Assembly (NCBI GenBank): GCA_036873135.1
Contig: JAPTYO010000011.1
Coordinates: forward strand, 18,858,747 to 18,922,746
Direction: 5' to 3'
Length of the DNA stretch: 64,000 nt
Source: Clarkia xantiana subsp. parviflora
Taxonomy: Eukaryota; Streptophyta; Magnoliopsida; Myrtales; Onagraceae
Shown: in pieces, positions 7,853 through 60,318 of the stretch
Position numbering within the stretch: position 1 is the first letter of the stretch
Layout: the number at the start of each line of letters is the position of its first letter
The notes under the pieces: generated by a model
Databases searched by the model: none
Told to the model about the DNA's origin: nothing
Seen by the model: only the letters and a program-made list of their open reading frames with translations
Translations under genes and position numbers: made by a program

Positions 7853-10134
7853 TCAATCAGAACCTTCGGGAGAGTCACCCTCACCCCCTGAAGCTGAACC
7901 ACCGGCAGAGATGGATGAAGAGGAGGAGTCTGAAGTACCGATCTCCACAGGTGTAGCATCCACCTGTGTAGGGGCAGGCTCGTCTGCAACAGCAGCCTGA
8001 CCCCTCAGAACAGCCATGTAGCCAGTAGCGTATGGCCCGAAGTCACCAAGATCACCAACTGGAAACTGAGGATCAATGCGGAAAATATGATCAACCAGAT
8101 ACTCACTAAACTGGTTCATCTCCTGAGTGAGACGCGCGCTATAATCAGCAGTGAAGGCAGAGGAAGCCTTGTACTCAGATACTGCGACAGTCCTCTCCTC
8201 TGCCCGGCACCTAGCCTCCAACCTCCGCAACTCCTCAGAGTGGAGTGAAGATGCAACCTCAGCCTCTCGGCGTAAACTACCTACGGTAGTCTCAAGCAAG
8301 GACACTTGGTCCCTGAGCTCCTACATCTTTAAATCAGATAAGCGCGCCTTCTCAGCAGCGGTGGCGAGCTCCGCCTTCAGAGAGACCTGGCTGTCCTCAA
8401 GGGCCTTCTTCTCGTCAGATAACTCGAGCACGAGTGATGACATGTTCACCATGTCAGACATACCCTAAAAATTCAAACAAGGGATGAGTAACCGAAAGAC
8501 AACCAATATGAAAGTATAAAGAAGAAAGCAAGGAACAACTCACAGGTGCATAACGAGAGAGTACACCCTGAACAAAGCGCCGAGTCTCCCCAGGAGACTT
8601 GGATTGAGCAACACGATCGCCAGGGGGGATGGCACCGCGAAGTACGCGGATCCCAACCTCAGGAGTCCGCAAAGAGGAGCTGCTATCAAGGTGGAACTCC
8701 TTCAAACCAGCGAAAGGAGTCCACTCAGACCCAATAACGTCTTCATCAGTAAGACGTGCGAAATCCTTCCGACTTAAAGTCGGAGGCCCACCTATACAAG
8801 CGAAGCAAGTCAAAGGAAAATATAAACATAGAAGGATCAGTAACAAGGTAGAGATCAAACCTGAGGACCGCGCCCTCGGCTGGGGGGCAGGGGAACCACC
8901 ACCAACAGGTCGCTTCCCTTTGTCAGCCAGGGAAGGCACCTCTTCGACCACCATCTCCTTATCACGAGATAGGGTCGGGGGACGAGCAGGATCCGCAGCT
9001 TTCTTCCTCTTAGCAGCCGAGGCCCCGGCCTCAGAATCAGATCTCCGCGGCTTAGACTTGGAAGGTCCAGAGTCTCTGCCTACGGAGACAACCCTCTCGG
9101 TCACCAAGGGGGAGCGCCCTAGCAATGTAAGAAAAACAAGATAAGGAAAACACAAAGTATACTATAAAGAAGCAAACAGGAGGAAGCATACCAGAGGCCC
9201 CAGCCTTCTTCCCAGGCATGGGGGATTTCTTCAGAGTGGAGCTAGAAGGAGCCTTCCTCTTGCTCAGGTCAACAGGTGCTCCCTGCACGTTATAGGTTTT
9301 TCCATGAAACCAACCTACAAAGGAAGAGCAGAAGGTAAATAAAGATGAGAAGACCAAGTAACATACCGAACCCCCGGAGTCAGGAGTCAAACTGATCCCG
9401 GCCTCGTAAAGATCCGTCTCAGTCACTAAGGACACGGGACAGTACGATCGAGTCCTGTTGCTCTCATGAATGATTTTCATAGTCTCCAAATCAACGGAGG
9501 AGAACTCCCCAAAAGCAGGCCAACCATCCGACCGATCTTCATTCAAGACCGGCCAAGTGACGTATCGATCCGTAATGAAGAAGTAATGCTTGGCCCAGTG
9601 ACTGGCCGAGTTGTCGCTCCGGGCCACGAAACGAAGAGAGGTATCCCACTCGACCCCACTCAACCCGAAATCAGCAAATCGGGGATCCTTGAAGGTCGGA
9701 TGGCGAGTTACGAAACTCGCAAACCCCACCTTCGTCTGGTACTGGAACCGGTAGAAACATCGGAACAGAACAAGGGAGTACTTCTAGGAGTACCAATGGC
9801 ACAACACCCGGAAGCCCTCCCAGACACGGAGGGCACTGGGGGCAAGGTTCACAGGAGAAATCCTGAAGAACCTGCTCAACTCTATGAGGTCATCGCAGTA
9901 AGGCAACCTCAACCCAAATCGAATCTGGGAGGGGTACACGACGACCTTCCCTCTAGGAGGCTCCGTCACTGTCTCGCGGGTATTCCCCAAGGAGGGGAGG
10001 AAAGGATATAGAGGCTCATCTAAGGGACAGATATCTCCTAAGGTAACGTGCTCATTGTAATCGGACCTAGTGAGGTGGTTCTCCGCAGCGAGACCTAAGG
10101 CAAAGGTAGCAGGAAATCCCAAAGTTCGAATCAA
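7853..10134 (-). pseudogene. Spliced antisense gene of element N (Transposase_28-like plus coiled coil)
   Basis: Reading leftward, 10134-9367 encodes a region like the antisense proteins of A, B and C: QIRFGLRLPYCDDLIELSRF then ALRVWEGFRVLCHW, resembling the 'putative gypsy type transposon' family (Transposase_28). One in-frame TAG lies at 9784-9786. Later segments are joined by stretches with GT/AG ends: 9366-9315 (short, 52 bp), 9191-9119, 8860-8792 and 8543-8465. The middle exons are Lys/Arg/Ser-rich (SKRKAPSSSTLKKSP), a possible nuclear signal. The last exon is Glu/Leu-rich and probably coiled coil, with a Ser/Gly/Asp tail and stop at 7853. One more stop seems to lie near 8323. The direction is opposite to gag. 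Function is unknown. Confidence 0.7.
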
Positions 10135-11770
10135 GTTTCGACTAACACCCCAGCTTAGATCGCGACACTAAGCTAATGATAGGAAAGGAAGAAATGCGAC
10201 AAAAAGAAGAGAAAAGGAACTCACTCATCCTTCGGAGGATGTAACGCCTCTGTAGAGTCTGTGTGCGCGGACACCACCAGGAATACAGTACCTGCCACGA
10301 CATGGCAAATATCAAGACAAGAAAATTTCCGAAAAACCGGAAGTACTCCGACACTCGACCAACGACAACAACCAAAGATTCGAAGACACCCAACAAAGAT
10401 AGCCAACATGACCCAAGGACACCACGACAACCAAATCGAATAATTTTATCCGAACCTAAAGTCGGTTTTCGGGCAAAATTACCATTACGCCCTCCAACGA
10501 AGATCAACACACCATTGGCGATACAATACCAAATTCAAAACCGGGATAGTTTAATCGGACAAGAAACCATCTCCGGACGACCGGCAAATTTTTTTTCCCA
10601 AATCCACAACTATCAACGGCTATCCACGACAATCCCACATTCAATCAAATTTCGGCAATCAAGTATCGGCAATCAAGTTTCGGCAATCAAGTATCGACAA
10701 CTCAAAAATCAACATTTTACGCGGTAACGGAAAGGAAAAGAGTGGACCTTCGGAAAACCCGACCCGATGTGATAAATGGGTCCGGATTTCGAATTTGGAG
10801 ACCGCCGGGAATCAGTCCCTCGCCGGAGGTCAGGTCCAGTCGTCGCCGGAGTTGATTCCGGCCGCCCCACCGTCACCGGAAAGCACCGCACGCTGCACCG
10901 GAGTCGTCCCACCTCGCCGTCGATCGCCCTCGCCGGACCAGACGTGGCCTTCGTCAACGGCAGCCTTGCCGTCGTCCTGGTCTGCTGGTCCGTCCCGCCT
11001 CCACGCCGCCGTAGCCGCCCGTCGAAGCCGTGGATTCCCTCGCCGTCGTGGATAACGGTCCCCTGTCGCCTCCCGCCGGAGCTGCTGGCCGGAATTTCGG
11101 GTTCCCACCGGAATTTTGGCCGGCCCTTGCCTTGGGTGTGCTCTCAATTTTTTCTTGCTCTCCAAGGGTGAGTAAAGAGGGAAGATGGTGGCTATGGTGA
11201 CTAACTAAGGTATTTTCTTAACTCTCCTCTATATTTGAAAGATGGTAGGGTTTTTTAAAGAGTTTTAATCACCACCCTCCATTTATTTTTAAAGTGAGAT
11301 CCAAGGGCCAAAGAAAAATCATCACTTTTATCCCTTTTAACTTTGGCTAAGTATATCTCCATACTTAGAAAAACTATCAAGTTAGACTTATTCTTGAGCA
11401 TCCCATACTTAGGAAAAAATTTTGGCCAAAATTGAATTTTTCCTCGCTTAGGCAAAATCCCGGCACGAAATTGAGACATGAGTCACTTAGGTGTATTCGT
11501 ATTACGCACCTATGCGAGCATGTATTTTTTGAGTACACGCCTGTAGCAAAAGTAGATTTATTACTCCCACGTCAGACGGACGCGTGCTTAGGCACACGTC
11601 CGCGCTACTCTAACGTTTACAACTCCTCTATCTCATAAGGCAGGGGGCGAAGTCGGAGACGCGCATCCATGGGTAAGCAAGCATCCAGACGAAAGGTAAA
11701 ACCCCGGTTTCAAATTGCGCGTATCATACCATCCTGAAATAGAGTCAATCAAGGGTTAGGCCATTGGTTG
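10135..11770. other. Upstream region of N's antisense gene
   Basis: No reliable gene was found. An AT-rich part (10280-10740) contains three copies of a 15 bp unit GGCAATCAAGTWTC near 10650-10700. A GC-rich part (10780-11110) holds long open frames in several phases of low-complexity Pro/Arg composition. The 3' end (11640-11770) is conserved in element E (61410-61560). By analogy with A-C, this region should contain the antisense promoter, but I see no clear TATA box. Confidence 0.5.
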
Positions 11771-26181: not shown

Positions 26182-26201
26182 AAACGTAGCGAAAAGCAAA
26201 T

Positions 26202-32200: not shown

Positions 32201-32298
32201 AAAATCGGAACTAAGATAGTTTGATATTTCTGAGGGCTCAAAGGCCCGAGGATGCGTTACAAAGAGAGGGAAATTACAAGGACTATAAAGATAAAGCA

Positions 32299-35135
32299 TT
32301 AAGCTTGGTCCTCGTCAGCATTGGCGGAAGCAGGATCCACGAGATCTGTGGTAGAAGGCTCCACAGGATCGGACCCTTGGAGGTCAGTCGATGAAGGTTC
32401 AGCTGCATGAGGGTCGATTATCGGGGGATCAACTGTCGGGGGATCGACACTTGGAAGCTCCGCCACGTCTTCAACACCCGCAGGGGTGTTGCCCTCATCA
32501 CTCTCCTCCGGGAGGTCGAAATACCTCTTCGCGAAGGGGGCGAGAGTAGCAGACTTGTCGAAACTAATGGCGTCGCCATACTCCAGATGGAGCTCCTCGA
32601 CCGCGTTGAAAAGGGTGTTCTCCACCTCCGTGGTGCAGAATTTCACCGCATCAGCTTGGAAGTCCTCAGAACCCCGATAATCTTCCCGACCCTTGGTCTC
32701 AGCCGCAGCCAGCTTGGTAGGGACATCGGCAATTTCCCGTTCCTGCCCCGCCTGGGCGTCTTCCAAAGCTTTCTTCTCGAGGACAAGTCTGTCCCGCTCG
32801 AGGAAGAGCCTGTCCCGAGCCTCCGCATCCTTGTGCCGCTCTTGCTGCTCCCGCTTCAGCAGCCTCTCAAAGTCGTGAACCTGCTTTTGGAGGTCCTGAA
32901 TCTTTCGATCAAGGAGGGCCTGCTCCTTAGCAAATTTTCCTCTCGAAGACTCGGAGGCCGCGAGATCCTCCTTAAGCTTGGCTACAACCACGGGAGCCCC
33001 CTTGGCCCGCTCCTGCTCCAGAGCCTCCTCGAGGGCAAAGATGTACCCGAAGCAGCGGTTCATGTCCACCAACTCCTGCGAAGGAAAGAAGAAAAGGTTA
33101 GCACATGAATATCCTGCCTTACTGATTAAAGGGTGAAAAAAGGAACCTTACCTCCACCAGACGAATAGCCATTCCGTGAACATCCGCGCGGATGTCCTCC
33201 CGATCTAGGGAGATCGGAACCTTCAGAGATGGAAGATCCGAGCATGCCACCAAGTGTAGACCCAGCTCCGGGTATGTGTTACCCTGTCGGAGCTGGACCC
33301 CTTGCAGCGTCTGGATCGGGGTCCAAGGAGCCGCCTTCTGGCTGGGGTCGTAGACTTTGTAGAAGCTCCCGTCCAAGGGGAGAGGAGGAGGACCGACTGG
33401 AGTCGTGGAGGTGCGCATCTCCGAGTCGCCCTGAGACGGAGAGGGAGTCAAGCTGTGAATGGGCGAATGCTGCTGCGAAGAAGGTGAGGGGGGCAGCCCC
33501 CCGGAGGTTGGCTTCAGTGGGGACTGCCTCGTTCCCCGACGACGAATCAAGGCGGTGCCCTCGTCTGTCTCCTCGGAGGAGTCCAGATCTTCCACCCGAC
33601 GAAACTGATCGCCTGTCGGGGTTTTTTCAGCCCCCGATCCCATCGGGGCAGGAAGTTGAAGGAGACCCTCTCCAACTTGAGCACCGGAAAGTGGTGCCCC
33701 TGCTGAAGCTCCAGCCCCCGACTGAGTTCCCGATCGACCTGCACCTAGAGGACAAGATGCTTCATAAAGATAGCCAGGAAGTTGGGCAGGATCCTTACAC
33801 CAAATGACGCGCCGAGAGAGGTATTGGTCTTTCCCGTGGTAGTTGTAGTAACCCGCTTTGAGGATGCGGGGAGTTTCCCCTCGGAGGATGCGTTTGACCT
33901 CTCTGATTCTGGCCTCCTTGCTGGAGGGTTGGGAACTAGCTTCCTGTACGACTTAATAGCTAGGCGAGCTGTTTACCTTCTTCAACACCTTGGACATTGA
34001 AGAGCCTTTCCATCTTCTCCACTCGGGCCCGCTTAGTCAGTTCCGCGGAGGGAGCTCCCGACGAAGCTGTGGCCTTCTTTGCCGACTTCCTCTTCTGCGC
34101 GGGGTGCTGGACAGCGTCAGTCTCTCCCTGCTTAAGGAGGAGATTGGTCAGCAGAGATACCTTCTTAGCTGCAAACAGTGGAAAACAGAGACGTGAACAG
34201 AAATGTTACCCAAGGAACCATATTGGAGGGGCCGTCGAAGAGTTGACCCCCAGAGATTATATCGAGGAGGCGGATCCCGGTGTCCACCAGGTCCTGCTCC
34301 TTGAGGGAGTTAGTGTCGAGGGGAGTGTAAGATTCTCCCCAACGGTAAAGCTGGATGCAATGAAGGATTTGAAAGTCTTCGTCCGAATAGGTGTGGTAAG
34401 CGGGAGGAGAGTCCGCTTCAACCTTCCATCGGGGCCATGGGATAGAACTATTCTTAATAAAGCAGTAGCTCCTCTTCCACCCGCTGTTATCAGACCCTGT
34501 GTCGATGAGGAGCCCCCGACCCTTGACAACCTTCCAAGTGTCACTGGTTCAACTACACCGTGCGAGCAGCTGCTTACTCCACTTCGGCATCCGAGGATAG
34601 AAGGCGCAAACCCCGGCCTCGTTGCATTTCATTCCGTAAAAAGTCCGGAAGAGTTGGAGGCTGTAAACCCACTTCTGTCGGAAGCAGAGAACCTGGAAAG
34701 CATTCCACACGCGGATGGCGTGGGGGGAGAAGGTAGTTGGATGCGTCTTGTAGTGGGTGCACATCTCAACCAGATTTCCGCAGAAGGGGAATCGAATCCC
34801 TGCCGATATTTGCCCGGTGGAGACAAATACCTCCCCTTCCCGGGGACGAGTGACCTCAGGGTCACCCGGGACGCGGGGCCAAGGATAAGGGAAGCGAGGC
34901 TCCCAGGTAGAAGTAATGCACCCATCCCGGAGAGCTGCATCATAGGCAGTGTTGGAAATCTCATTGGCGGCATAGTCGAAGTTAAAGGGCTTTCTTCCCT
35001 CGGAACTGGATCCGCTGTCTGAAAATTAGCCATGGCAAGAAAAGGCGTAATGGGTTTTCGGAAGAATGCAAGCAAATTGATCAAAAACAAGGGAAAGACT
35101 ATGCTAACATCAGAGAAGGAAGTCTTACCAGACAT
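32299..35135 (-). pseudogene. Spliced antisense gene of element A
   Basis: The minus-strand ATG (35135-35133) begins a seven-base exon ATGTCTG. An intron with GTAAG and TTTCAG ends (35128-35019) leads to exon 2 (35018-34210): MSDSGSS, NFDYAANEIS, QISAGIRFPFCGNLVE, WNAFQVLCFRQKW, a Transposase_28-like region. Exon 3 (34168-33152) has a basic patch and a Pro/Ser-rich linker with APWTPIQTLQGVQLRQG. Exon 4 (33075-32299) is a Glu/Lys/Leu coiled coil with an acidic tail ending DEDQA. Exon 2 has at least one frame break (near 34600). The frame between exons 2 and 3 does not join cleanly with the visible GT site. CTATAAAA lies about 155 bases upstream (35287-35294). Molecular function is unknown. Confidence 0.75.
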
Positions 35136-35680
35136 GATGACTCGAAGTGAATAGGATGATCTTCACGGTCACCGGGAGGCTGATCGGAAAATAGGAAGCC
35201 GAAGAAGAACTTGCGCTTTCGAAATTGCAGAGCTTTTGAAATTACAGAGACGGAAACGGTAAAAGAGAAAGAAGAACAGTACCAGGGTTTTATAGAAGAA
35301 GGGACAGTCGAAAGGACATTCTAATCTGGACCGTTGAAAGTGAAACGTTTCAATCCGAACCGTTGAGATAAAAGGGGGCAGAATGGAAAGAGATGTTAAT
35401 GATGAAACGGCCTGAAAAGTACTTTTTCAGAAAAATCAGGCACGGGGGCCGAGATCGTCGCTTCGTCACCTGCTGCATTTAATAGTTGAGTAACCAAGAA
35501 ATCTCTTCGGATTCGGTGGTTATCCTCGTAGCATCGGGGAATCTTGGAGGAGGTGATCTGCTTCAAAAGATCTTCCGAGAAGGTCCGTGTTAATCAAATT
35601 TTGTCAAGGGAAAAGCCTCGGATACCGGTATCGGGAGGTCGGGAGTTAAAGACACGACGAACTGTAAGTCCCTCATGTCT
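35136..35680 (-). promoter_or_regulatory. Antisense promoter region of element A
   Basis: On the minus strand the sequence TCTATAAAACCCTGG (near 35280-35294) sits about 150 bases before the antisense ATG. It is conserved at the same place in B, C and D, together with a purine/pyrimidine block around GCCTGAAAAGTACTTTTTC (35411-35430). It does not encode protein on either strand. Confidence 0.7.
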
Positions 35681-35690
35681 TGGGGGCAAA
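35681..35690 (+). other. Polypurine tract of element A
   Basis: TGGGGGCAAA directly precedes the 3' LTR. Confidence 0.85.
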
Positions 35691-37120: not shown

Positions 37121-37137
37121 TTGGCGCCGTCTGTGGG
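37121..37137 (+). other. Primer-binding site of element B
   Basis: TTGGCGCCGTCTGTGGG, identical to element A. Confidence 0.8.
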
Positions 37138-37156
37138 AACCAAACAAAAAGCTGAT

Positions 37157-40100
37157 ATGCCTTCTACTCGATCAATGGCGGCTGGCAAGAACAGAAGACA
37201 GGGACAATCCGGTGGTTCCCGTCACCCCGCTGCAACGAATCTGAATTCAGTACCAGAACAAGAGGAAAACCAGAACCATCCCCCGTCTGAGCTCTCCCAG
37301 ACAGGAGGGCACAATGGATCGCATCCCGAAGATGTTGCCCCTCAGCACCAGGACAACAGGGGGCAGGAGGCTCCCCCAGCTGCAGATTTGACGAGGGCCG
37401 TGGCAGAGGCCATGCCCATGTTTCTGGCGGCTGTAGAGGCTCTCTTGGATCGAAGAGAGGCTGCGAGGAGGCAGGAGGAGATGCCCCCGTTGGAGGAAGC
37501 GACCCCGCTAACAGAGGGCCGGAACGCACAGGAAGCCCCGCCCCGAAGCCAAGACAGAGGTAGGGCGACCGGTCAGCCGGAGAGGTTCGTGGTTGATGGG
37601 CCAGGACCAGTACAGCACAGGACCATTCCCCTGAATGGTCTCATCACTCCCGACCAGGTGGTAAAGATCGTGAACATCTGTATGGGAGAACAGAACCCGC
37701 TGGTGTCGGAGCTGAGGGATCGATCCACTCATCCCTTCGTCCCTCGACTCATTGATACCCTAGCCCCGCCTGGGCTAGGCATCCCCACGATAAAGGAGTA
37801 TGATGGCGAAGGAGATCCAGTTCGCCACGTCCAGAAGCACCTCATGGCGTGTCTGGGAAGAGCTCCAAGTGAAGACATAGTGTGTACGTTGTTCCCGAAT
37901 ACACTGGGAGAAAGAGCCCTGACCTGGTTCTTCAGTCTGCCCCCAGGCTGCATCACTTGCTGGGCAGACATGCACGACCGATTCATTCAGTAGTACCAGG
38001 GTCGGAGGCGTTTATTGAAGAGTGTGAGGTCTCTGACCCAGGTGGTGCAGAGGCCCGACGAATCGTTGGCTCATTACTACCAGCGGTACACAGCCAGCGT
38101 AGCAGAGATAGATGAGGAAATCTCAGAGGGCGAAACCATCCGTACCTTCATTCGGAACCTGACAGCCCCCTATGGCTCCGATTTGATGCACAGCGTGGCT
38201 GAGAAGGCTGTGTGGAATATGGAGGCATTACAGAAGAGGGTGAAGCGGCAGATCGATGTCCAGGAGTCAAAGATAGCCGCGGGAGAACTGGAGCCCCCAA
38301 AGTCGAACAAAGGGAAGCAGTCAAGTAAACCTTTCGACGATCGTAAGTCAAAAGGTAAACCCGACAGTGGCAAGAATCGAGGTCGTCCGGATCGGAGGGA
38401 CGACAGACGTTCTTCAAGGAAGGATAAGCGGGAGGATTTTGACATTCCTCTCAACTGCTCTATGGCGGAAATGCTGACAGTCATGGAACGACAAGGTATC
38501 TCCAGGTACCCCCCGAAGAAAGATGGAGAATTCCTGGGGTCCCGCACAGATCGCTATTGTCGATTTCACCGCGCAAATGGCCATGACACCAATCACTGTC
38601 GGGAGCTGAAGAAGGAGATTGAAAAGCTGATCCAGAAGGGGAAGCTTAAGGAATTTGTCGGGAATAAGCGGTGCCGATCCCGCTCTCGGTCCCGATCGCG
38701 GTCCCGTTCCCGATCCCGCGATCGGTCCCCAAAGAAGAAGAGAACCGATCCAGAGTCATCCGGTGCTCGCAAGGAGAGACGGGGCACTATCAATGTGATC
38801 CACGGAGGATTTGCTGCTGGAGGTGATACCTCATCCGCCCGAGAAGTCTATGCCTCTAGAATCCCTACGGCGGTGGTGCTGGGTAAGAGGTCCCGATCCT
38901 GGACCTTGAAAGAAGAGATGGTAATCTCCTTTTCGTCGGAAGACCTCATAGGCGTAGAGACTCCGCACGATGATGCCTTGGTGGTAACCTTGGATGTAGA
39001 TGGGTTCGAAATGAAGAGAATTCTAATCGACGGGGGAAGCTCCTCCGACATCCTATTCATGGACGCGCTGGAGGCTTTGGGGAAGACGAAAAAAGATCTG
39101 AAGGAGGCAAACTTCCCGATGGTTGGATTCTCTGGCTCAACCTCCTATCCGCTAGGAGTAATCACCTTACCAGTGGAGTTTGGTAGCGGGTGGAAATCAG
39201 AAAGAAGGAACGTGGAGTTTGTCGTGGTTGATTCCGCGGGAACCTACAATGCAATTATCGGAAGAACCACCATTAATCCTCTGATGGCGGTTGCCTCGAC
39301 TGTGCACCAGAAGATGAAGTTCCCGACCGACCACGGAGTCGGAGAGGTCAAGGACGACCAGGTGGCTTCCCGAAAATTCTATGTTAATGCCACCCGGAGG
39401 AGGAGGCGAGAGGCCATGACTGTCCTCCAGACAGACACAGATCCCAGAGAAGAGTTTGGGCATCCCGCCCCCGTAGAAGATCTGAAAGAAGTCGAGATCG
39501 ACGGACCCCAGAGGAGGGTGAAAATCGGGTCTGCTCTGACTGAGGAGACAGCCCAAAAATTGGTGGAGTTGTTGAAGGAGTTCAAGGAGCTGTTTGCCTG
39601 GTCCCCGAGCGATATGCCAGGAATCAGCCCCGATGTGATCGTACACGAGCTAAAGATAGACCCCGCGATCAAGCCTATCACGCAAAAAAGGCGTCCGATG
39701 GGCACGGATAAGAAGATTGCGATCCAGCAGGAGGTGGGCAGGTTGCTCGACGCCGGGTTCATTAAGGAGCTCCGATTCCAAACTTGGGTGGCCAACCCAG
39801 TGCTGGTGAAGAAGACTAACGGGAAATGGCGAATGTGCGTGGACTTCCGCGACCTGAACAAGGCTTGCCCAAAGGACTGCTATCCACTCCCGAGGATCGA
39901 CCAGCTGGTGGAAACCACGTCGGGACATGAGCTGTTGAGTTTCATGGATGCGTACTTAGGATACAACCAGATCAAAATGGCCAAGGAAGACGCTCCCCAC
40001 ACAGCGTTCTACGCGGACAGTGACATCTACCACTACGATGTCATGCCTTTCGGGTTGATCAATGCTGGGGCCACCTACCAACGGATGGTGAACAAACTGT

Positions 40101-42767
40101 TTGGAGATATGCTGGGAGAAACCATGGAAGCTTACGTGGACGATATGCTGGTGAAGTCCCGACGAGCCGAGGACCACGTACACAACCTTACCATGGCGTT
40201 TGAGCGGATGAGGCTCCATCAAGTCCGCTTGAACCCGACGAAATGCGCCTTCGGAGTCCACTCAGGGAAATTCTTGGGCTTCATGGTAAGTCAGAGAGGA
40301 ATTGAAGTGAATCCTGAGAAGCTGAGGGCAATCGAGGAGATGCAGTCCCCGATAAACCATCGGGAGGTGCAAGTACTGAATGGCCGACTAGCTGCAATGA
40401 ACCGCTTCTTGCTCAAAGCCAGCGACCGATCAATGTCGTTTTTTGAAGTCTTGAGGGCCAACAAAAAATTCGAATGGACCGCCAAATGTGAAGAAGCGTT
40501 CCAAGCACTCAAGCAGCACCTTCGCACACTCCCGCCGCTGGCAAAACCGGTTCCAGGCGAGCCGCTCTTCCTTTATTTGGCTGTTTCTGAATTTGCCATT
40601 AGCTCTGTGTTAGTAAAGATTGTCGAGGGTAATCAAGTCCCCGTCTATTATGTAAGCAAGGCATTTGCCAAATCTGAATTGAACTACTCCGCCGTTGAGA
40701 AGTACCTCTTTGCGTTGATTATTACTGCTCGGAAGCTAAGGCCATATTTCCACGCACACGAGATCATTGTGCTAACGAACCAGCCTTTGAAGCATTTTTT
40801 GAACCGACCGGATGCGTCGGGGAGATTAGTGAAATGGGCAGTAGAGCTTAGCGAGTTTCGCATACACTTCGCTCCGAGAACAGCCATTAAGGGTCAGGCA
40901 TTAGCAGATTTCATAGCAGAGTCTACAGCCCCCGATCTGGAAGAAGCGGGCCCTGTAGAGGGGGCAACCATGGAAGTCCCGACAGAAGTACAACCAGAGA
41001 GGGCAGAGCAATCAGAACAGCCAAACAAGGAAAATATCTGTGAGATGTACACGGATGGCTCCGCGAGTTCAGACGGATCAGGAGCGGGCTTCTTGTTGAT
41101 ACCACCAGGTGAAGGTGAACCGCTCCGATACGCCTTGGCTTTAACATTCAAGGCCACAAACAACGAAGCGGAGTACGAAGCTCTTATCACGGGCCTAAAA
41201 ATCGCTAAAGGCACTGGAATCGATCACTTGAGAGTGAAGTGCGACGCAGCTTTAATCGTGAACCAGGTTCAAGGGCGATACGAAGCAAGGAGTCCGATAA
41301 TGAAAAAGTATCTGCGAGAGGTACAAGCCTTGAGAGAGGGCTTCAAAAGCTTCGATATCGAGGCTATCCCGAGGGAGGAGAACGTAGAGGCAGACGCCTT
41401 GAGTAAATTTGCCCTGGGGGGCACCCTTGGAAGAAAATCGGAAGGTGCACTTCTTGGAGATGGTGATCTTATCAAACATCGACCCAACACAGGTGTGCAC
41501 CATTGAGACAAAATCGGAGGAAGAGCCCACTTGGATGACCCCGATAGTCGCGTATCTGACTACGGGGGCAGTCCCCGAGGATAAGGTAGCAGCAGACAGA
41601 ATATGCCGGATCGCGTCTAATTATGTGATGCTGGATAATCAGCTGTACAAGAAGGGCTGGTTCTCGACTCCGTACCTGAAGTGTGTAGCAAAACCCGACA
41701 CCAATCGAATCCTGAAGGAAATGCACGAGGGGGTCGCGGCTTGTCACGAAGGGGCCCGATCCATTTTGAGGAAGGTGTTGAACTTAGGCTACTATTGGCC
41801 CACGATGAACAAAGAAGCAACGGCGTTGGTCCGATCATGCGACGCGTGCCAGAGGTACGCCCCGAGTATCGCGGCTCCGGCCGCCAACCTAACATCCATC
41901 AAGAGCGCTTGGCCCTTCGCGCAGTGGGGCATCGACTTGGTGGGACCTCTTCCACAAGCACAAGGACAATGTAAGTATTTACTTGTAGCTATCGATTATT
42001 TTTCGAAATGGATAGAGGCGAAGGCGTTGGCCAGAACAACGGGGAACCAGATCGTCAAGTTCCTCCAGACCCACATCGTGTCCAGATACGGAATTCCTAA
42101 GGTGGTGATCAGCGACAATGGCCCACCATTCAACGGCTCTCAGGTGAAGGAGTATCTGGAGGAGTTGAACATTGAGCATCGGACTGCTTCTGTACGTCAT
42201 GCTCAAACTAATGGCCAGGTGGAGTCCGCCAACAAAATCGTGATGGATGGCCTGAAGAAGAGGGTCTATGCCTTGAAGGGCAAGTGGCTGAACGAACTAG
42301 AAAATGTGCTTTGGGCTGTTAGAACGACACCCAAACGATCAACAGGAGAGACTCCGTTTGGCCTCGTTTATGGCACGGAAGCTGTCGCCCCTGTGGAGGT
42401 AGCTGTGGCGTCCCATCGGATGAGATATTACGAGCCCCTAACGAACGACGAAGTGAGACGTCTGGACTTGGACTTACTTGAAGAGAAGAGGCGGGAAGCC
42501 GATGAAGTCCAAGCTCGAATGCGTTTAGCGACGGCCAGGTACTACAATCGGCGAGTGAAGTCCCGACAGTTCTTTGTCGGGGAGCTAATTTGGCGTCGCA
42601 ACGAGTTCACCCTTTTGGATCGAATCAACAAGATGTCACCAAAATGGGAAGGACCTTATAAGGTCGTGGGGATGCCAGCTCCAAATGCATACAAGTTGGA
42701 AGACCTCGATGGCAGAACATTAAAGCATTCTTACAGTGGCGAACACTTGAAGAAACACCATGCTTGA
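37157..42767 (+). pseudogene. Gag-pol polyprotein of element B (one nonsense codon, one frameshift)
   Basis: I place the start at ATG 37157, matching A's start context. Gag is interrupted by TAG at 37991-37993 where A has CAG; the same frame then runs to 41506. It includes the knuckle RYCRFHRANGHDTNHC, an Arg-Ser tract (38671-38732), protease ILIDGGSSSD, RT with YVDD (40133-40144) and PFGLINAG, first RNase H, and second RNase H with MYTDGSAS. One extra G in a G run near 41416-41421 shifts the frame. Integrase continues in the next frame (41409-42767) with GIDLVGP, SDNGPPF and GQVESAN. Every catalytic motif I could locate is intact, so this is the best-preserved pol in the window. Confidence 0.94.
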
Positions 42768-43800: not shown

Positions 43801-43948
43801 AGGTTTCGACTTAAGCGCGTATAAGTAAAGTCACTCGGAGAAGTGTAACAAAAGATCGGAACTAAGGAAGTCTGATATTGATAAGGGCTCAAGGGCCCGA
43901 CGACGACGCAAGAGAAGAAGATACAAGGACTCTAAAAAGATAAAACAT

Positions 43949-46659
43949 TCAAGCTTGGTCCTTGTTGACAGCATTGGCAGCAGCTGGGTCCGCGGAGTCG
44001 GTAGCAGAGGGATCCACAGGATTGGCTTCGGGAGGATTGGCTATCGGGGCGTCCGCACTTGGAAGTTCAGAAGCGTCTTCGACAATTACGGGGGTACTCC
44101 CCCCATCACTCTCCTCGGAGAGAGCAAAATACTTCTTCGCAAAGGGAGCGAGGGAAGGAGACTTGTCGAAGTTGATAGCATCCCCGTACTCCAGGTGGAG
44201 CTCCTCAACCGCGTTAAAGAGAGTGTTCTCCACCTCTGCGCCAAAGAACTTCATGGCATCAGCTTGGAAGCCCTCAGACCTCCGATAGTCCTCCCGGCCC
44301 TTTTCCTCCGCTTCGGCCAGCTGCGCAGGAAACCCCGCGATTAGCTCCTCCAAAGCCTTCTTCTCAAGGACCAGTTGGTCCTCGGCAGCCTTCTTCTCCT
44401 GGGTCAGCCTGTCCACAATCACCCCCGCTCCTGCCGTTCTTGCCTCAAGAGCCCCTCGAAGTCCGCGATCTGCTGCTGAAGATCCCGAATCTTCTGATTA
44501 AGGGCAGCCTGCTCCTTGACAAGCTTCCCCCGCAGAGACTGGGAGGCCTTGAGATCCGCCTGAAGCTGCTCGCGGACCCCTCGGTCCCGCTCCCGGGCCT
44601 CATCATAGGCAATAACATACCCGATGAGGCGGTTGTAGTCCCCGAGCTCCTGCAATAAGAAGGAAAAGTGTTAATGAACAAACGACCCGATCTATCATCA
44701 ACAAGAAAGAAGCAAAGTCTCACCTCTACGCGGCGCACAGCCATATCCCTGATATCCCGCTGCATATGCGTCCGATTGAGGTAAATCGGATGCCGCATAG
44801 AAGGCAGAATAGAACCCGCCAGCAGATGCAGGGCCAGCGCCTGGTCCTGTTCCCCTTGTGTGAGCGGGACTCCCTGAAGCGTCTGGATAGGAGTCCAGGG
44901 GGCATTCGCCTGTGAAGAATTGAAGGGCCTGTAGAAGTCCCCATCAAGAGCAAGGGGAGAGATAGGACGAGGAATGGAAGGGCACGCCTCCGTCTCTCCC
45001 CGAACAGGGGAAGGAGAGAAGTCGTGGATAGGTGAGAGCTGCCGCTGCTGCGGAGAAGACGAAGGAGGCGGCCCCTGAGGGGTTGGTTTCAAGGGGGATT
45101 GCCCCGCCTTCCGACGTTGTTGAGGGGGGTCAACCCCGCCAATCTCCTCGGAGGAGTCCAGAGTTTCCACCTGACGAAACTGTTCGCCAGTTGGAACCTT
45201 CTCTCCAGCTGAGGAAGGCACCCCCGCTGAAGGCGGTGCGTCTGCGGAAGCCGCAGCACCCGAGGAAGCTCCCGAGCGACCTGCACCTGGAGGATGAGAA
45301 GCTTCAGAAAGGTAGTCAGGAAGTTCATCGGGATTCTTACACCAGATGATACGTCGGGAGACGTATTGATCCTTCCCACGATAATGATAGTAGCCTGCCT
45401 TCAAGACTCGGGGAGTTTCGCCTCGAAGGATTCTTTTGACATCAGTAATGCGGCCTTCCTTGGTCGAGGAAATCAAATCCGATGGGACCATCCTCTTGTA
45501 CGATTTAATAGCAAGTCGAAGTTGTTTACCTTCTTCAGCGTTCTGGACATCGAAGAGCTGGTCCAGATCCACCCGCTTCCGCTTGGGCTGCTCCGCTGAA
45601 GGAGACCCCGACCTAGCAGCAGCCTTCTTGGCAGACTTCCTCTTCCGCGAGGGGCGGACAGCATCAGTCTCCCCCTGCTTAAGGAACAGATCGGTCAGCA
45701 CAGATACCTTCTTGGCTGCAAACAGTAAACAAAGAAAGAGTTAGAAGTTTACCCAAGGAACCATATTGGAAGGGCCGTCGAAGAGTTGACCCCCAGAAAC
45801 AATGTCGAGGAGTCGGATCCCGGCGTGCACCAGGTCCCGCTCCACGAGTGAGTTGGCGTTGAGAGGAGTGTAAGACTCCTCCCACCGATAGAGCTGGATA
45901 AGCTGGAGAGTCTCAAAATCCCCATCAGCATAAGTATGGAAAGCAGGTGGAGGGTCCGCTACCACCTCCCAACGAGGCCAGGGAATGGAGGAGTGACGGA
46001 TAAAGAAGTAACTCCTTTTCCAGCTACTGTTGTCGGACCCTGTATCAATCAAGAGTCCTCGACCCTTGACCACCTTCCAGGTGTCACTGGTCCAACCGTA
46101 CCGGGCAAGTTGCTGCTTACTCCACTTGGGCATCCGAGGGTAGAAGGCGCAAACCCCCGCCTCATTGCACTTCATCCCATAAAAGGTTCTGAAGAGTTGG
46201 AGGCTGTAGACCCACTTCTGTCGAAGGCAAAGGACTTGAAAGGCGTTCCAGAGGCGGATGGCATGGGGAGAAAAGGTAGTGGGGTGTGTTCTGTAATGGT
46301 GGCACAGCTCCACCAGATTACCGCAAAAGGGGAACCTGATCCCCGCTGATATTTGTCCCGTAGAGACAAACACCTCCCCTTTCTGGGGACGAGTAACCTC
46401 AGAGTCACTCGAGGGACGATGCCTAGGATACGGGAAACGAGGTTCCCAGGTGATGGTGATGCAACCCTCTCGGAGAGCTGCATCATAAGCAGTATTGGAA
46501 ATCTCATTTGGAGCATAGTCAAAGTTAAAGGGTTTTCTCCCCTCGGAGCTGGAACCGCTGTCTGAAAAGCAACCAGGGCAAGAAAATACAGTGGGACTCT
46601 TGGAGAAATTAGAAGGGAAAAGACGAACAAGCAACGAAGAGGGATTCCTTACCAGACAT
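43949..46659 (-). pseudogene. Spliced antisense gene of element B
   Basis: Exon 1 is the seven-base ATGTCTG (46659-46653). Intron 1 (46652-46562, 91 bp) has GTAAGG and TTTCAG ends. Exon 2 (46561-45753) is open throughout: NFDYAPNEISNTAYDAALRE, QISAGIRFPFCGNLVELCHH, FYGMKCNEAGVCAFYPRMPK, WPRWEV and FDGPSN, resembling Transposase_28. Exon 3 (45715-44724) carries RKRKSAKKAAA, a likely nuclear signal, then VDLDQLFDVQNAEEGKQLRL and a Pro-rich linker. Exon 4 (44649-43949) is a coiled coil with an acidic tail ending NKDQA, with one base missing near 44425. The phase at the visible exon 2 donor does not match exon 3. TATA (ACTATAAAACC) is at 46820-46830. Confidence 0.78.
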
Positions 46660-47204
46660 GATGAAGTAGAGGTTGAAGGAGATGAGCGAAGCGTCGCCGG
46701 AAAGATGATCGGGAAGACTCCAGAGACCTTCGAAATCACAGAGCTTGGAATCGCAGAGAAATCGCAGAGAGCTTTTGAGAATTCGAAGACGGTAAAAGTT
46801 AAATTGTGACTATGGCTAGGGTTTTATAGTCGAAGAAGACGGTTGAAAGGACACTTCGATCCGAGTCGTCGGAGTCGAAGAGTCTTAATCTGGACCGTTG
46901 AGATGAAACGTGCAGAAGGACAACGGGGGTAATGATGAAACGGCCTGAAAAGCACTTTTTCAGAAAAGGACAGGCGCGAAAAATAAGGCACGTGGGTCGA
47001 AAACGTCACTCCATTATCTACTGCATTTAATGCACTAGGAAACCGAGAAGACCCTTGGGATATAACAGTTATCTACAAAATCCTGAGGAAACGTAGAGGA
47101 GAAGACTGATAAACTGAGTAACTGAACCAAGGAAAAGATCCCCGACTTTAATATTGGAAGATCGGGAGTTGAAAGACACGACGAACTAAAAGTCCCTCAT
47201 GTCT
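46660..47204 (-). promoter_or_regulatory. Antisense promoter region of element B
   Basis: TATAAAACC on the minus strand lies about 165 bases before the antisense ATG. The surrounding sequence is conserved with A, C and D, including CTGAAAAGCACTTTTTCAG (46946-46964), a near-perfect inverted repeat. Confidence 0.7.
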
Positions 47205-47214
47205 TGGGGGCAAA
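47205..47214 (+). other. Polypurine tract of element B
   Basis: TGGGGGCAAA precedes the 3' LTR. Confidence 0.85.
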
Positions 47215-47911
47215 TGATGGGTCCGACTATAGCCGTCAGGCCCTTTAACGGCGAGGAAACGACAAACAGGCCCACCAGGCCCAGAGTGAAGGTCAAGATG
47301 ACTTAGGAGAAGGGTCCCGACGAAGGGAGTCCCGACGAGGCAAGGTCCCGACAGAGTCGGTTCCGACAGTGGAGCTGGAAGCTCCCGATAAGAAGCCTTT
47401 AAGTAGGCCCCGATGGTGAATCCCTGAGAATGATTGGCCCTGTCACGATGACGAGGGGCCCCGAGCGGTGACACAACGAGATAACTCTGGAGTCCCCGAC
47501 AGGAGTCGGGACTCGTTATCAGAGGATAAAGCCAAGATATGCGGGGCGTGGCCGAGATACGCGGAACGTGGTTAAGATACACGGAGCGTGGCTGAGATAC
47601 GCGGGGCATGGCTAAGATACGCGAGATCACGTCCGAGATATGCGGGATACGGGCTAACCACCCCTAACGGTTCGCCAGGTACCTGAGGCATCTCTTTGCC
47701 TATAAAAGGGCAGGAGATCACCTCAGAAAGACTTACGTTGAGTTGAATACACTCTGAGTTTATTACTTGCCAGTCATACGAGATACTCATTTAAGCATCG
47801 GAGAGGGATTCTGGGTCACCGCCCGGTCTATCCCCTCTTGCAGGATTGCGTGGAGCAAAGGAGCTAGGATTGCCGTCAAAGTCTGTACCGGAGTTCCACC
47901 GTGATCCAACA
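47215..47911 (+). repeat. 3' LTR of element B (697 bp)
   Basis: Equal in length to the 5' LTR and followed by ACAGT. Confidence 0.95.
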
Positions 47912-50687: not shown

Positions 50688-51248
50688 TTTGCCCCCAAGA
50701 CATGAGGGACTTATAGTTAGTCGTGTCTTTCAGCTCCCGACCTCCCGATATCAGTATCGGAGGCTTTTCTCTTGGCAAAATTTCTTGACACGGATCTTCT
50801 CGTCCACGTCTCCTCGATGCCTTGTGGATAACTGCTAAATCCGAGAAGACTCCTCGGTTCCCCAGCCATTAAATGCAGCAGATAACGAAGCGACGTCTTC
50901 GGCACTCGTGCCTGATTTCTCGCGCCTGCTTTTTCGGAAAGTGCTTTTCAGGCCGTTTCATCATTACACCCATTGCCATTCTGTATGTTTCATCTCAACG
51001 GCCCAGATTAAAACGCTTCGACTTCGACGATTCAGATCAGAGCGTCCTTTCGACTGTCCTCTTCGCCTATAAAACCCTAGCCCTGGGCACAGTTTTCACT
51101 TTACCGTCTCCAAAATTTCAAAAGCTCTCGGCAACTTCTGAGAACTTCAAGCTCTGCGATTTCAAAGACCTAAGTGCTCCTCCGGCCTCCTGTTCTTCCA
51201 AGCAACTTTCCGGCAACGTCCAGTTCATCCTTCCAGCCTCCAATCATC
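50688..51248 (+). promoter_or_regulatory. Promoter region of the antisense gene of C
   Basis: CCTATAAAACCCTAG (51065-51079) lies about 180 bases before ATG 51249. The region matches the antisense promoter regions of A, B and D, including the GAAAGTGCTTTTCAGGCCG block. Confidence 0.7.
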
Positions 51249-54200
51249 ATGTCTGGTAAGGATTTCTTCTTCGTTGCTTGTACATCTTTTCCTTGTTTGC
51301 AGTTTTCCGGAAAACCCAACGTGCCTTTCCATGGCTGATTTCAGACAGCGGATCTAGTTCCGAGGGAAGGAAGCCCTTCAACTTCGACTATGCTCTGAAC
51401 GAGATTTCCAGTACTGCGTACGATGCAGCTCTCCGGGAGGGATGCATCACCTCTACCTGGGAACCTCGTTTCCCCGTATCCTTGGCTGCGACTCCCGGGT
51501 AACCTTGAGGTTACTCGTGATAGAGTATATAAGTTAATATGCTCACATTGCATCTTGTTACTTATACTTGCATTTACTTCCATCATGTCATTAGATGATT
51601 CTATAAGGCTATTGTATGGTGCATATATCATGCAGTACATGTTACATGGTATATGCACCTTGGTGCACCAAGTTAGGCACATAGGATAGTTAGTCCTAGT
51701 TGGGGATCCTTATCACCTAGTATATATAGTTTACCTCTTGCATTGTAATCCCTAATCATCAATCAACAAATGATTCAACCTACTAAAGCTATTATGGTAT
51801 CAGAGCCACCTCAAATGGCGGCACAACCACAAAGCTAAAGAAGACCAAGTTTCTTCAACCCGGAAAGGGGAGGTATTTGTGGGCAAATATCGGCGGGGAT
51901 TAGATTCCCCTTCTCTGGTAATCTGGTCGAGATGTGCCAGCACTACAAGACGCATCCGACCACCTCTCTCCCCACGTCGTCTGTGGAACGCCTTCCAGGT
52001 CCTCTGCTTCCGACAGAAGTGGGTTTACAGCCTCAAGCTCTTCAGGACCTTCTACGGGATGAAGTGCAACGAGGCGGGGGTTTGTGCCTTCTACCCCCGC
52101 ATGCCGAAGTGGAAAAAGATGCAACTCGGGTTGTGCAACTGGACCAATGACACCTGGAAGGTGGTCAAGGGTCGGGGACTCCTGGTCGACACGAGCTCCG
52201 ACAACAGTGGGTGGAAGAGGAGCTACTTCTTCATCCAAAACTCCTCAATCCCGTGGCCCCGATGGGAGGTGGAAGCGGATTCTCCTCCTGCTTTCCACAC
52301 CTATACCGACGAAGACTTCCAGACTCTTCAACTCATCCAGCTCTACCGGTGGGGGGAGTCCTACACTCCCCTCGACGCCAATTCTCTCGTGGAGCGGGAC
52401 CTGGTGAATGCCGGGATCCGACTCCTCGACATAGTCTCCCGGGGGCAGCTCTTCGACGGCCTCCTGGGTAAATCTCTAACCTTTGTTTTTTACTGTTTGC
52501 AGCTAAGAAGGTATCCGTGCTGACCAGTCTGATCCTTAAGCAGGGGGAGACCGATGCTGTCCGCCCCACGCGGAAGAGGAAGTCAGCCAAGAAGGCTGCT
52601 GCTCCATCGGGATCTCCTTCCGAGGAGAGGCCAAAGCAGAGCCGTATGGAGGTGGATAAGCTCTTCGACGTCCAGAACGCTGAAGAAGGTAAAAAGCTCC
52701 GCCTCGCTATTAAATCGTACAGGAGGCTGGTTCCGAAGGAGTTGATTCCTTCGACCATGGAAGCCCGCATCGCCGATGTCAAACGAGTCCTCCGGGGGGA
52801 AACTCCTCGTGTCCTGAAGGCGGGCTACTACAACTACCACGGGAAGGACCAATATGTCTCCCGACATATTGTTTGGTGTAAGGACCCTAATGAACTTCCT
52901 GATTACGTTTCTAAAGCCTCCTCTCGTCCTCTAGGTGCAGGTCACTCGGGGACTCCATCGGGTGCTGGAGCCTCAGCAGGTGCACCACCTTCAGCAGGGG
53001 CGCCTCCTTCAGCAGGGGCACCACTTTTCTCTGGTGGAGAGACCCTGACCGGCGAACAATTTCGTCGGGTGGAGAACCTGGACTCCTCCGAGGAGACCGA
53101 TGAGGGCGGCTCCCTTCGTCATCGTCGGGGGACGGGGCAGTCCCCACTGAAACCAACCTCCAAGGGGCCCCCCTCGCCTTCTTCACAACAGCGACAGCCG
53201 TCGCCCATCCACGACTTCACTCCTTCCCCCGCCCGGGGCGAGCCGGAGGCGCGCCCCTCCACGACTCTGAAGGCCCTCCTCCTCTCCCTCTCGACGGGAG
53301 TTTCTACAGGGCCTTCGACCCCGCACAGGTGGATGCTCCCTGGACCCCGATCCAAACGCTGCAAGGGGTCCAGCTCCGACAAGGGGATGCCTACCCGGAA
53401 CTGGCTCCGCATCTGCTAGCAGGCTCGATCCTGCCCAGTATGAGGTATCCGATTTCCCTGAATCGGGAGGCGATCCGTCGGGACGTTCGAGACATGTCCA
53501 TGCGTCAGATAGAGGTAAGACTCACTTTTCTCTCCTTCATCAATAAGGCTGGTTGCTCATCCACTAACACTTCTCTTTCTTCTATCGCGGGAGATCGGGG
53601 ACATCAACCGTCTCTTCGGGTACCTCTTCGCCTTCGAGGAGACCCGGGAGCGGGAGCAGGCGGTCATAGCCAAGCTTAAGGACAATCTCGCGGCCTCCAA
53701 GTCTTCGCGGGGAAAACTGGCCAAGGAGCAGGCCATCCTCGACCGAAAGACTCGGGACCTCCAAAAGCAGGTTTGTGACTTCGAGGAGCTCCTGAAGCGG
53801 GAGCAGCAGGAGCGGCGGGTTGCTGAGGACAAACTTGTCCTGGAAAAGAAGGCTCTGGAGGAGCAAGTTGCTGAGGTTCCTGCGCAACTGGTCGCGGCTG
53901 AGACCAAGGGCCGGGAGGATTATCGGAGGTTCGAGGACTTCCAGGCTGATTCAGTGAAGTTCTGCAGCGCGGAGGTGGAGAACACCCTCTTCAACGCAGT
54001 TGAGGAACTTCACCTGGAGTATGGCGACGCCATTGACTTCGACAAGTTTCCATCTCTCGCTCCCTTCGCGAAGAAATACTTTGCCCTCTCGGAGGAGAGT
54101 GACGAGGGGAACACCCCCGCGGTTGTTGAAGACATGGCGGAGCCTCCAAGTGCCGACGCCCCGATAATCGACCCTCCAGCAGCCGAACCTGTGGAGCCTT

Positions 54201-54259
54201 CTGCCACAGATCTCGTGGACCCTGCTCCCGTTGATGCCGCCGACAAGGACCAAGCCTAA
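51249..54259 (+). pseudogene. Spliced antisense gene of element C (interrupted)
   Basis: Exon 1 is ATGTCTG (51249-51255). Intron 1 is 51256-51344 (89 bp, GTAAGG to TTTCAG). Exon 2 (51345-52467) has NFDYALNEISSTAYDAALRE and, after a 344 bp insertion, WNAFQVLCFRQKWVYS and WPRWEVEAD. Intron 2 (52468-52502) is only 35 bp but joins exons 2 and 3 in frame. Exon 3 (52503-53514) has VRPTRKRKSAKKAA and a Pro-rich linker, with a frameshift near 53265. Intron 3 begins GTAAG (53515); its acceptor CAG has become CGG (53589). Exon 4 (53591-54259) is a Glu/Lys coiled coil ending DKDQA. Direction is opposite to gag-pol of C. Confidence 0.72.
51518..51861 (+). mobile_element. LTR fragment with primer-binding site inserted in the antisense exon of C
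   Basis: Comparison with B shows about 344 extra bases between GAGGTTACTCGT and GGAAAGGGGAGG. They contain TATATATAG (51720), then TGGTATCAGAGCC (51795-51807, initiator-Met-type PBS) and about 50 bases of leader including ATGGCGGC. So this is a copia-type LTR plus the start of an interior, the rest deleted. No clear target duplication. Confidence 0.75.
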
Positions 54260-54399
54260 CTGCTTATCTTTAAAGTCCTTGTATTCTCCTCATTTTTGTA
54301 ATCATCGAGCCTTTGAGCCCCTATTAATATCAGACTTAGTTTCGATTTTCCATTGCACCTCTCAAAGTGACTTTACTATACTTATTTAAGTCGAAATCT

Positions 54400-54983: not shown

Positions 54984-54984
54984 A

Positions 54985-59788: not shown

Positions 59789-60318
59789 TTTGCCCCCTGG
59801 ACATGAGGGACTTATAGTTCGTCGTGTCTTTCAACTCCCGATCTCCCGATACGAGTATCGGAGTCTTTTCTCTTGATAAAATTCCTTGACGCCTTGTGGA
59901 TAACCTCCGTATCCGAGAAGACTCCTCGGTTCCCCAGCCATTAAATGCAGCAGATAAGGAAGCGACGTCTTCGGCACTCGTGCCTAATTTTTCGCGCCTG
60001 CTTTTTCTGAAAAGTGCTTTTCAGGCCGTTTCATCATTACGCCCGTTGCCATTCTGCACGTTCCATCTCAACGGTCCAGATCAAAACGCTTCAACTTCAA
60101 CGATTCAGATCAAAGCGTCCTTTGGACTGTCCCCTTCGCCTATAAAACCCTAGCCGTGGGCACAGTTTTACTTTTACCGTCTCCAGATTTTCAAAAGCTC
60201 TTTGCAACTTCTCTGCGATTTCCAGCTCTGCTATTCCGAAGATCTCAGTCCTCCTCCGATCACTTTTCCGGCAACGTCAAGTTTGTCCTTCCATCCTCCA
60301 ATCATCATCTCTGGTAAG
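59134..60318 (-). mobile_element. D: minus-strand element of the A/B family nested in gag of C
   Basis: Its 3' LTR is 59134-59788, preceded by GATCC (59129-59133), the likely duplication. To the right lie the purine tract complement and the antisense promoter with CCTATAAAACCCTAG (60138-60152). At 60311-60318 the antisense start reads ATCTCTGGTAAG, so the ATG has become ATC. Element E interrupts here; the rest of D lies beyond the window. Confidence 0.88.

What the first reader, a model, noticed from the sequence alone, without database searches (positions are those of the whole stretch)
43949..46830. Antisense gene with its own TATA box and introns, kept in four related gypsy elements
A (35294-32299), B (46830-43949), C (51067-54259) and the visible part of D all carry, on the strand opposite to gag-pol, TATAAAAC, then ATGTCTG, then GTAAG...TTTCAG and the same coding exons. 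Antisense open frames between pol and the 3' LTR are known for Tat-lineage elements. A full promoter plus intron layout conserved at the same positions suggests a real host-like transcription unit travelling inside the retroelement. An intron on the antisense strand is not removed when the genomic RNA is copied, so it can persist through retrotransposition.
Basis: partly seen in the sequence, partly recalled or inferred. Interest (0 to 1): 0.82.

Follow-up and report, generated by a model that had tools for sequence, protein, structure and literature searches.

The report
Spliced antisense gene inside plant retrotransposons
Several related plant jumping genes in this stretch carry, on their opposite strand, what looks like a separate protein-coding gene with its own promoter and introns; this type of gene is known, but its intron layout seems little described.

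Summary
The observation mostly holds. A, B and C are Tat/Retand-type gypsy elements carrying, opposite to gag-pol and between pol and the 3' LTR, a TATA box, a 7-nt first coding exon (ATGTCTG) and three predicted introns. D has the TATA box and donor, but its start codon reads ATC and it is cut off at the donor. The antisense frame was protein-coding in the elements' history: dN/dS is 0.19-0.23 over 785-798 codons and 0.07-0.11 in exon 2, near the 0.06-0.09 of 5 of 6 gag-pol comparisons. Predicted introns are T-rich; introns 2 and 3 keep branch-point-like motifs. A fifth, distant element (E) has a homologous antisense exon 2 bounded by predicted introns of the same phases. The antisense gene is broken in all five elements seen. 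The protein resembles the known Retand antisense Transposase_28/TRP28 protein (Pfam hits below cut-off); own-promoter antisense transcription is published for the related Grande element. New is the multi-intron layout, not mentioned in the passages I could read; two key papers were not held. No RNA evidence; the host genome search did not complete; function is inferred.

The parts
46821..46828 (-). B: TATA box (TATAAAAC) of the antisense gene, 387 bases from the 3' LTR edge at 47215
46653..46659 (-). B: coding part of exon 1, ATGTCTG
46562..46652 (-). B: intron 1, 91 nt, GTAAGG..TTTCAG, phase 1
45753..46561 (-). B: exon 2, TRP28-type domain, dN/dS 0.07-0.11
45675..45752 (-). B: intron 2, 78 nt in the preferred model (GTAAAC..AAGCAG, phase 0); a 42-nt alternative ends at 45711
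44724..45674 (-). B: exon 3, basic NLS-like stretch (by eye) and linker
44650..44723 (-). B: intron 3, 74 nt, GTGAGA..TTGCAG, phase 0
43949..44649 (-). B: exon 4, frameshifted; stop ends at 43949
35287..35294 (-). A: TATA box
32299..35135 (-). A: antisense gene from ATG to stop; introns 35128-35019, 34209-34128 (preferred), 33151-33076; TGA in exon 2 at 34551-34549 and frameshifting gaps in exon 3
51068..51075 (+). C: TATA box
51249..54259 (+). C: antisense gene, broken by a 339-nt insert from about 51519 and several indels; intron 3 has lost its AG
60141..60318 (+). D: TATA box to first donor only; ATG replaced by ATC at 60307-60309
7853..10228 (-). E: distant homologous antisense gene, six predicted exons, five predicted introns (10224-10095, 9366-9283, 9191-9119, 8860-8792, 8543-8465), in-frame stops in exons 2 and 6
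47215..47911 (+). B: 3' LTR (pairs with 36424-37120, 98.6% identical)
37994..41506 (+). B: sense ORF with reverse transcriptase and two RNase H-type domains, opposite in direction to the antisense gene

Best explanation
This is the antisense accessory gene of Tat/Retand-type Ty3-gypsy LTR retrotransposons, with a multi-exon layout. Inferred working: RNA polymerase II starts at an internal TATA promoter 353-397 bases from the 3' LTR edge and transcribes against gag-pol. The pre-mRNA loses three introns (91, 78 and 74 nt in B) and encodes a protein of roughly 820-850 aa (estimated from exon lengths; no intact copy seen): a TRP28-type domain in exon 2, a basic NLS-like stretch in exon 3 and a C-terminal exon that looks helical. 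The protein probably works in the nucleus on the element's own expression or integration. As the splice signals lie on the antisense strand, the sense genomic RNA keeps the introns through reverse transcription, so they persist. Shown: antisense frame under purifying selection, splice-type signals and intron-like composition, a homologous exon 2 with like-placed introns in a second family. Inferred: transcription, splicing, nuclear role.
For: dN/dS in the antisense frame 0.188 (A-B, 798 codons), 0.195 (B-C, 796), 0.228 (A-C, 785); exon 2 0.070, 0.105, 0.113; differences pile up at third codon positions. Gag-pol benchmark 0.059-0.094 in 5 of 6 comparisons. 13 of 14 predicted introns begin GT and end AG; all 14 have T 0.35-0.55 against 0.20-0.28 in 5 exons. 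CTGAC 20 nt before the preferred intron-2 end in 3 of 3 copies and TAAC 21-23 nt before the intron-3 end in 3 of 3. E's exon 2 aligns with B's in two pieces (scores 155 and 170; highest of 200 shuffles 56 and 51) and is bounded by a phase-1 intron at the start codon and a phase-0 intron after the domain. A, B and E pieces hit PF04195. Own-promoter antisense transcription and a nuclear protein are reported for Grande gene23 (PMC7264820, passages).
Against: No transcript evidence. All five antisense genes seen are broken. PF04195 scores (20.8, 21.1, 24.1 bits) are below the curated 26.2. One sense frame also shows low dN/dS (0.17-0.46), and beats the antisense frame in 1 of 12 exon-wise comparisons (exon 4 first part, A-C: 0.38 against 0.436). 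The intron-2 acceptor is not settled, and a 24-nt stretch inside the preferred intron 2 has only one variable site among A, B, C, unusual for an intron. Intron 1 has no consistent branch-point-like motif. E's later exons align poorly with B's: 47 of 500, 495 of 500, 542 and 615 of 2000 shuffles reach the score; only last exon against last exon reaches 4 of 500, over a helix-like stretch.
Confidence: 0.75

Rival explanations
1. Two or more separate, unspliced antisense ORFs (a TRP28 ORF and a C-terminal ORF), the apparent introns being spacers, as an ORF finder would report them.
For: PMC11963269 used ORF Finder and reports several antisense ORFs per element (104 in 63 clusters). Introns 2 and 3 could be read as spacers.
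Against: The conserved start of exon 2 has no in-frame ATG before it in the conserved part, whereas the tiny exon 1 gives one; in A an in-frame stop lies just before exon 2. GT..AG ends, T-richness and branch-point-like motifs are not expected of spacers. E shows introns in like places.
Confidence: 0.12
2. A non-coding antisense RNA matters (double-stranded or small-RNA regulation) and the ORFs are incidental.
For: Antisense transcripts of retrotransposons can regulate by duplex formation; raised as a possibility in PMC7264820 (passages).
Against: dN/dS 0.19-0.23 with differences concentrated at third codon positions over about 790 codons shows protein-level constraint. It may act in addition to the protein.
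Confidence: 0.05
3. Artefact: the antisense frame is open only because it mirrors a sense coding frame.
For: Long sense ORFs also occur in places (for example 33964-35022) and one sense frame has dN/dS 0.17-0.46.
Against: That frame pairs its third positions with those of the antisense frame, so a low value is expected as an echo; it has 14-20 stop-bearing codons per comparison in exons 2 and 3, against 0 or 1 in the antisense frame, and a higher dN/dS in 11 of 12 exon-wise comparisons. The PF04195 match is in the antisense frame.
Confidence: 0.03
4. On origin (compatible with the best explanation): the unit is a captured host gene that kept its introns because it was taken up in antisense orientation.
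For: A promoter-exon-intron unit opposite to gag-pol is what DNA-level capture, or capture through read-through RNA, would leave (inference).
Against: No relative outside elements was found, but two protein searches returned 0 hits of any kind, plant element relatives included, so they are uninformative. PMC11963269 reports no TRP28 similarity outside transposable elements.
Confidence: 0.25

Closest known systems
Antisense TRP28 (Transposase_28, PF04195) ORFs of Retand-lineage elements (Vicient 2025, PMC11963269; text parts 1-3 of 5 and a term search read)
   Same: Same place (between pol and 3' LTR), same strand, same domain family by a sub-threshold Pfam match; [quoted passage not shown]
   Different: That study works with ORFs; the word intron does not occur in its text. 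Here the gene is predicted to have three introns (five in E)
Grande gene23 of maize (Gomez-Orte 2013, not held; seen only as cited in PMC7264820, passages)
   Same: Antisense gene between pol and 3' LTR, transcribed from its own upstream promoter, nuclear protein
   Different: Sequence not compared here; whether gene23 has introns could not be checked
Intron-bearing plant LTR elements Ogre and EVADE (PMC12786077 and PMC6317226, passages)
   Same: Spliceosomal introns in an LTR retrotransposon
   Different: Those introns are in the sense gag-pol transcript; these lie on the antisense strand
Retroviral antisense genes such as HTLV-1 HBZ (PMC11963269 background; PMC10186651 abstract in search listing)
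   Same: Works like: an antisense gene of a retroelement giving a nuclear regulatory protein
   Different: Promoters there lie in the 3' LTR; here the TATA box is internal. No homology claimed

Membership tests
Tat/Retand lineage of Ty3-gypsy | gag, RT, RNase H plus a second RNase H, integrase after RT (the double RNase H as a Tat mark is recalled) | tested here: met
   A: Retrotrans_gag, RVT_1, RT_RNaseH, RVT_3, Integrase_H2C2; rve in A below cut-off, above it in C
Tat/Retand lineage of Ty3-gypsy | Placement with Retand in a reverse transcriptase tree | not tested
   No tree was built; no reference RT sequences were fetched
Tat/Retand lineage of Ty3-gypsy | Long pol-3' LTR region (2,933-6,566 bp) and LTRs of 315-1,194 bp in PMC11963269 | tested here: met
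   About 3.9 kb in A and 4.4 kb in B from the last integrase-side ORF to the 3' LTR; LTRs 658-697 bp
[quoted passage not shown]
   Arrays at 31789-32121, 42770-43752 and 54417-54986
Retand antisense TRP28 gene | Antisense ORF matching PF04195 | tested here: inconclusive
   B 20.8, A piece 21.1, E piece 24.1 bits, all below the 26.2 cut-off; no match in one C piece and a second E piece
Retand antisense TRP28 gene | Protein-coding constraint on the antisense frame | tested here: met
   dN/dS 0.188, 0.195, 0.228 for the three pairs of A, B, C
Spliceosomal introns on the antisense strand | GT..AG ends, T-rich, plausible plant length, frame kept | tested here: met
   13 of 14 GT..AG; 69-130 nt in the preferred model; frame kept in B up to its own exon-4 frameshift
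Spliceosomal introns on the antisense strand | Spliced transcripts | not testable with these tools
   No RNA data at hand
Nuclear accessory protein | Nuclear location and DNA binding | not testable with these tools
   Only a basic stretch seen by eye in exon 3

The most novel reading that the evidence does not exclude
Retand-type elements carry an ancient multi-intron polymerase II gene on the antisense strand. Its first introns predate the split of element families now about 30% identical in the encoded domain, and have been copied unspliced through every round of reverse transcription. Antisense placement would then be a way for a retroelement to keep introns and a splicing-dependent nuclear gene.
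Probability: 0.55. Interest if true: 0.65.

Novelty: new variant of a known kind. Interest (0 to 1): 0.5.

Why it matters
Introns are expected to be lost when an element moves through RNA; a 2025 review says plant LTR elements generally lack introns and names Ogre and EVADE as exceptions (PMC12786077, passages). A conserved intron-bearing antisense gene would show that strand placement escapes this rule. It would also mean that ORF-based surveys split or truncate this protein and so misjudge its length and domains. With correct full-length transcripts, the open question of what the Retand antisense protein does becomes directly testable.

Tried and rejected
Search of the host's own genome for more copies: 19 of 19 calls not answered (3, 5, 11, 20, 25, 27, 30, 32, 36, 41, 43, 45, 47, 50, 57, 59, 66, 73, 77). 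So selection rests on three copies plus one distant one.

Protein searches gave 0 hits and so say nothing about relatives. A sequence search of solved structures gave 0. The AlphaFold model of exon 2 from 8 short rows was poor (mean pLDDT 40.2), so no fold search was made. Related-locus searches with the alignment could not start.

Gene model: a first intron 2 of 42 nt (also used in the query) was replaced by 78 nt because of the usual minimum length of plant introns (recalled), the invariant CTGAC 20 nt before the end, and a similar acceptor in E. Against this: a 24-nt stretch around TTTGCAG with one variable site; and codon-position differences in the 12 disputed codons ([3,0,1], [2,1,1], [2,1,2]) are too few to decide. 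Both versions keep the frame. A third option with a weak donor (G|GTCAAC) was set aside because the stretch after it is nearly identical in A and B.

In one search one exon-4 piece was scored in a wrong frame; one search corrects it and replaces the dN/dS values. Homology of the later exons of E to those of B was tested and mostly not supported.

Full report
What is in the window. Three Tat/Retand-type elements: A (25468-36348, +), B (36424-47911, +) and C (49978-59788, -). A fourth, D, shares the LTR 59131-59788 with C, and its homology to the others ends at 60318. A fifth, more distant element, E, lies at about 1440-12577. A encodes gag, reverse transcriptase, RNase H, a second RNase H-type domain and integrase parts.

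The signals. TATAAAAC is present in 4 of 4 copies A-D, ATGTCTG in 3 of 4 (D has ATC), the GTAAG donor in 4 of 4, and TTTCAG followed by ACAGCGG in 3 of 3 copies that reach it. The TATA boxes lie 353-397 bases from the 3' LTR edge, inside the element rather than in the LTR. Seven blocks of 9 or more bases are invariant in A-D between the LTR and the first donor, among them CTATAAAACCCT and a 22-base block at 46952-46931.

The gene. The model for B: exon 1 46659-46653 (coding part), intron 1 of 91 nt, exon 2 46561-45753, intron 2 of 78 nt (preferred), exon 3 45674-44724, intron 3 of 74 nt, exon 4 44649-43949. The frame runs through the junctions until a frameshift in exon 4. Exon 2 of B matches Pfam PF04195 Transposase_28 (E 0.00046, 20.8 bits; cut-off 26.2). 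Of four further exon-2 pieces scanned, one of A (21.1 bits) and one of E (24.1 bits) match the same profile; a second E piece and a C piece that begins late in the domain do not.

Selection. dN/dS (Nei-Gojobori, own script) for A-B, B-C and A-C is 0.188, 0.195 and 0.228 over 798, 796 and 785 codons (bootstrap 95% 0.147-0.232, 0.154-0.237, 0.183-0.283). Exon 2 alone: 0.070, 0.105, 0.113. Differences by codon position: 161/130/333, 127/109/281, 119/95/250. Shifted antisense frames and two of the sense frames give 0.56-2.85 exon by exon. The third sense frame, whose third positions face those of the antisense frame, gives 0.17-0.46; the antisense frame is lower in 11 of 12 exon-wise comparisons, and that sense frame has 14-20 stop-bearing codons per comparison in exons 2 and 3 against 0 or 1. 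Gag-pol, A against B and A against C, gives 0.059-0.094 in 5 of 6 comparisons and 0.36 in the sixth, a 77-codon gag piece. B against C was not computed for gag-pol. Exon 2 is thus about as constrained as pol. A-B dS is 1.01 in the antisense exons, while the LTR pairs of B and A are 98.6% and about 92% identical. So the constraint acted mostly during the active history of the elements, before these broken insertions.

Introns. Identity among A, B and C in introns is 48-66% in 8 of 9 comparisons and 78% in one of 23 nt (for intron 2 only the diverged part was measured). Exons are 74-80% identical. All 14 predicted introns have T 0.35-0.55 and GC 0.33-0.44; the 5 exons measured have T 0.20-0.28 and GC 0.54-0.58. 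This fits transcription on the antisense strand. 13 of 14 begin GT and end AG; C's intron 3 has lost its AG. CTGAC stands 20 nt before the preferred intron-2 end in 3 of 3 copies, and TAAC 21-23 nt before the intron-3 end in 3 of 3; intron 1 has no consistent motif. The end of intron 2 is not settled: AAGCAG gives 76-82 nt, an alternative 36 nt earlier gives 40-46 nt in the same phase.

A second family. E's antisense protein is about 30% identical to B's by tblastn over 310 positions. Its exon 2 aligns with B's in two pieces (scores 155 and 170; best of 200 shuffles 56 and 51). That exon is bounded by an intron at the start codon (ATGA|GTGAGT, phase 1) and one after the domain (phase 0), as in B; E has three further predicted introns. 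The later exons of E align poorly with B's or A's: 47 of 500, 495 of 500, 542 of 2000 and 615 of 2000 shuffles reach the score; last exon against last exon reaches 4 of 500, over a helix-like stretch. So only the first two introns are argued to be homologous. A TATA-like TTTAAAAAACCCTA lies near 11259, about 1 kb before E's start codon (by eye).

State of the copies. The antisense gene is broken in all five: A has a stop in exon 2 and frameshifting gaps in exon 3; B an exon-4 frameshift; C a 339-nt insert, several indels and a lost acceptor; D is truncated and lacks ATG; E has stops in exons 2 and 6.

Literature. PMC11963269 (text parts 1-3 of 5 and a term search) reports antisense TRP28 ORFs in 97% of recent Retand clusters; 'intron' does not occur in its text. 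PMC7264820 (passages) reports that Grande gene23 is transcribed from its own promoter and has a nuclear product, and asks that spliced antisense transcripts be looked for. PMC6317226 (passages) finds Transposase_28 in 23% of Retand elements. PMC12786077 (passages) says plant LTR elements generally lack introns, with Ogre and EVADE as exceptions. PMC11728184 and PMC7730604 (passages) hold no mention of 'antisense' in their text. Paper searches (only the top 9-20 of 9 to 10,050 papers were listed, judged by title and start of abstract) showed no report of introns in these antisense genes. The Grande gene23 paper of 2013 and the 2011 survey of extra ORFs are not held, so an earlier report cannot be excluded.

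Conclusion. This is a formerly functional, probably spliced antisense accessory gene of Retand-type elements: a known kind of gene with a little-described intron layout, parts of which are shared by two distant families. Expression, splicing and function remain untested.

Noticed in passing
1440-12577: A fifth, distant gypsy element (E) with its own antisense gene; its LTR is about 90% identical to 60627-61397, part of the sequence that follows the break in D.
   Followed up: partly
59131-59788: One LTR serves both C and D, which lie head to tail: a sign of recombination between LTRs. The LTR-plus-promoter stretches of C and D are only about 83% identical.
   Followed up: no
49978-59133: C is a mosaic: its body is closer to A (87% against 84% to B), while its LTR and promoter region is closer to B (about 80-82% against 74-76% to A).
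   Followed up: no
46952-46931 (also in A, C, D): A 22-base block, CTTTTCAGGCCGTTTCATCATT, is invariant in A-D about 100 bases upstream of the TATA box; a possible regulatory site.
   Followed up: no
62497-63039: An ORF in the sequence following the break in D looks, by eye, like the exon-4 region of E's antisense gene; tblastn with the B model found no exon-2 match there and Pfam found none.
   Followed up: partly
51519-51857: The insert in C looks, by eye, like a fragment of another LTR element (it ends near a TGGTATCAGAGC primer-site-like motif).
   Followed up: no
31789-32121, 42770-43752, 54417-54986: Tandem arrays of 25-27 bases, with longer units of 75 in B and 103 in C, lie between pol and the antisense gene.
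   Followed up: no
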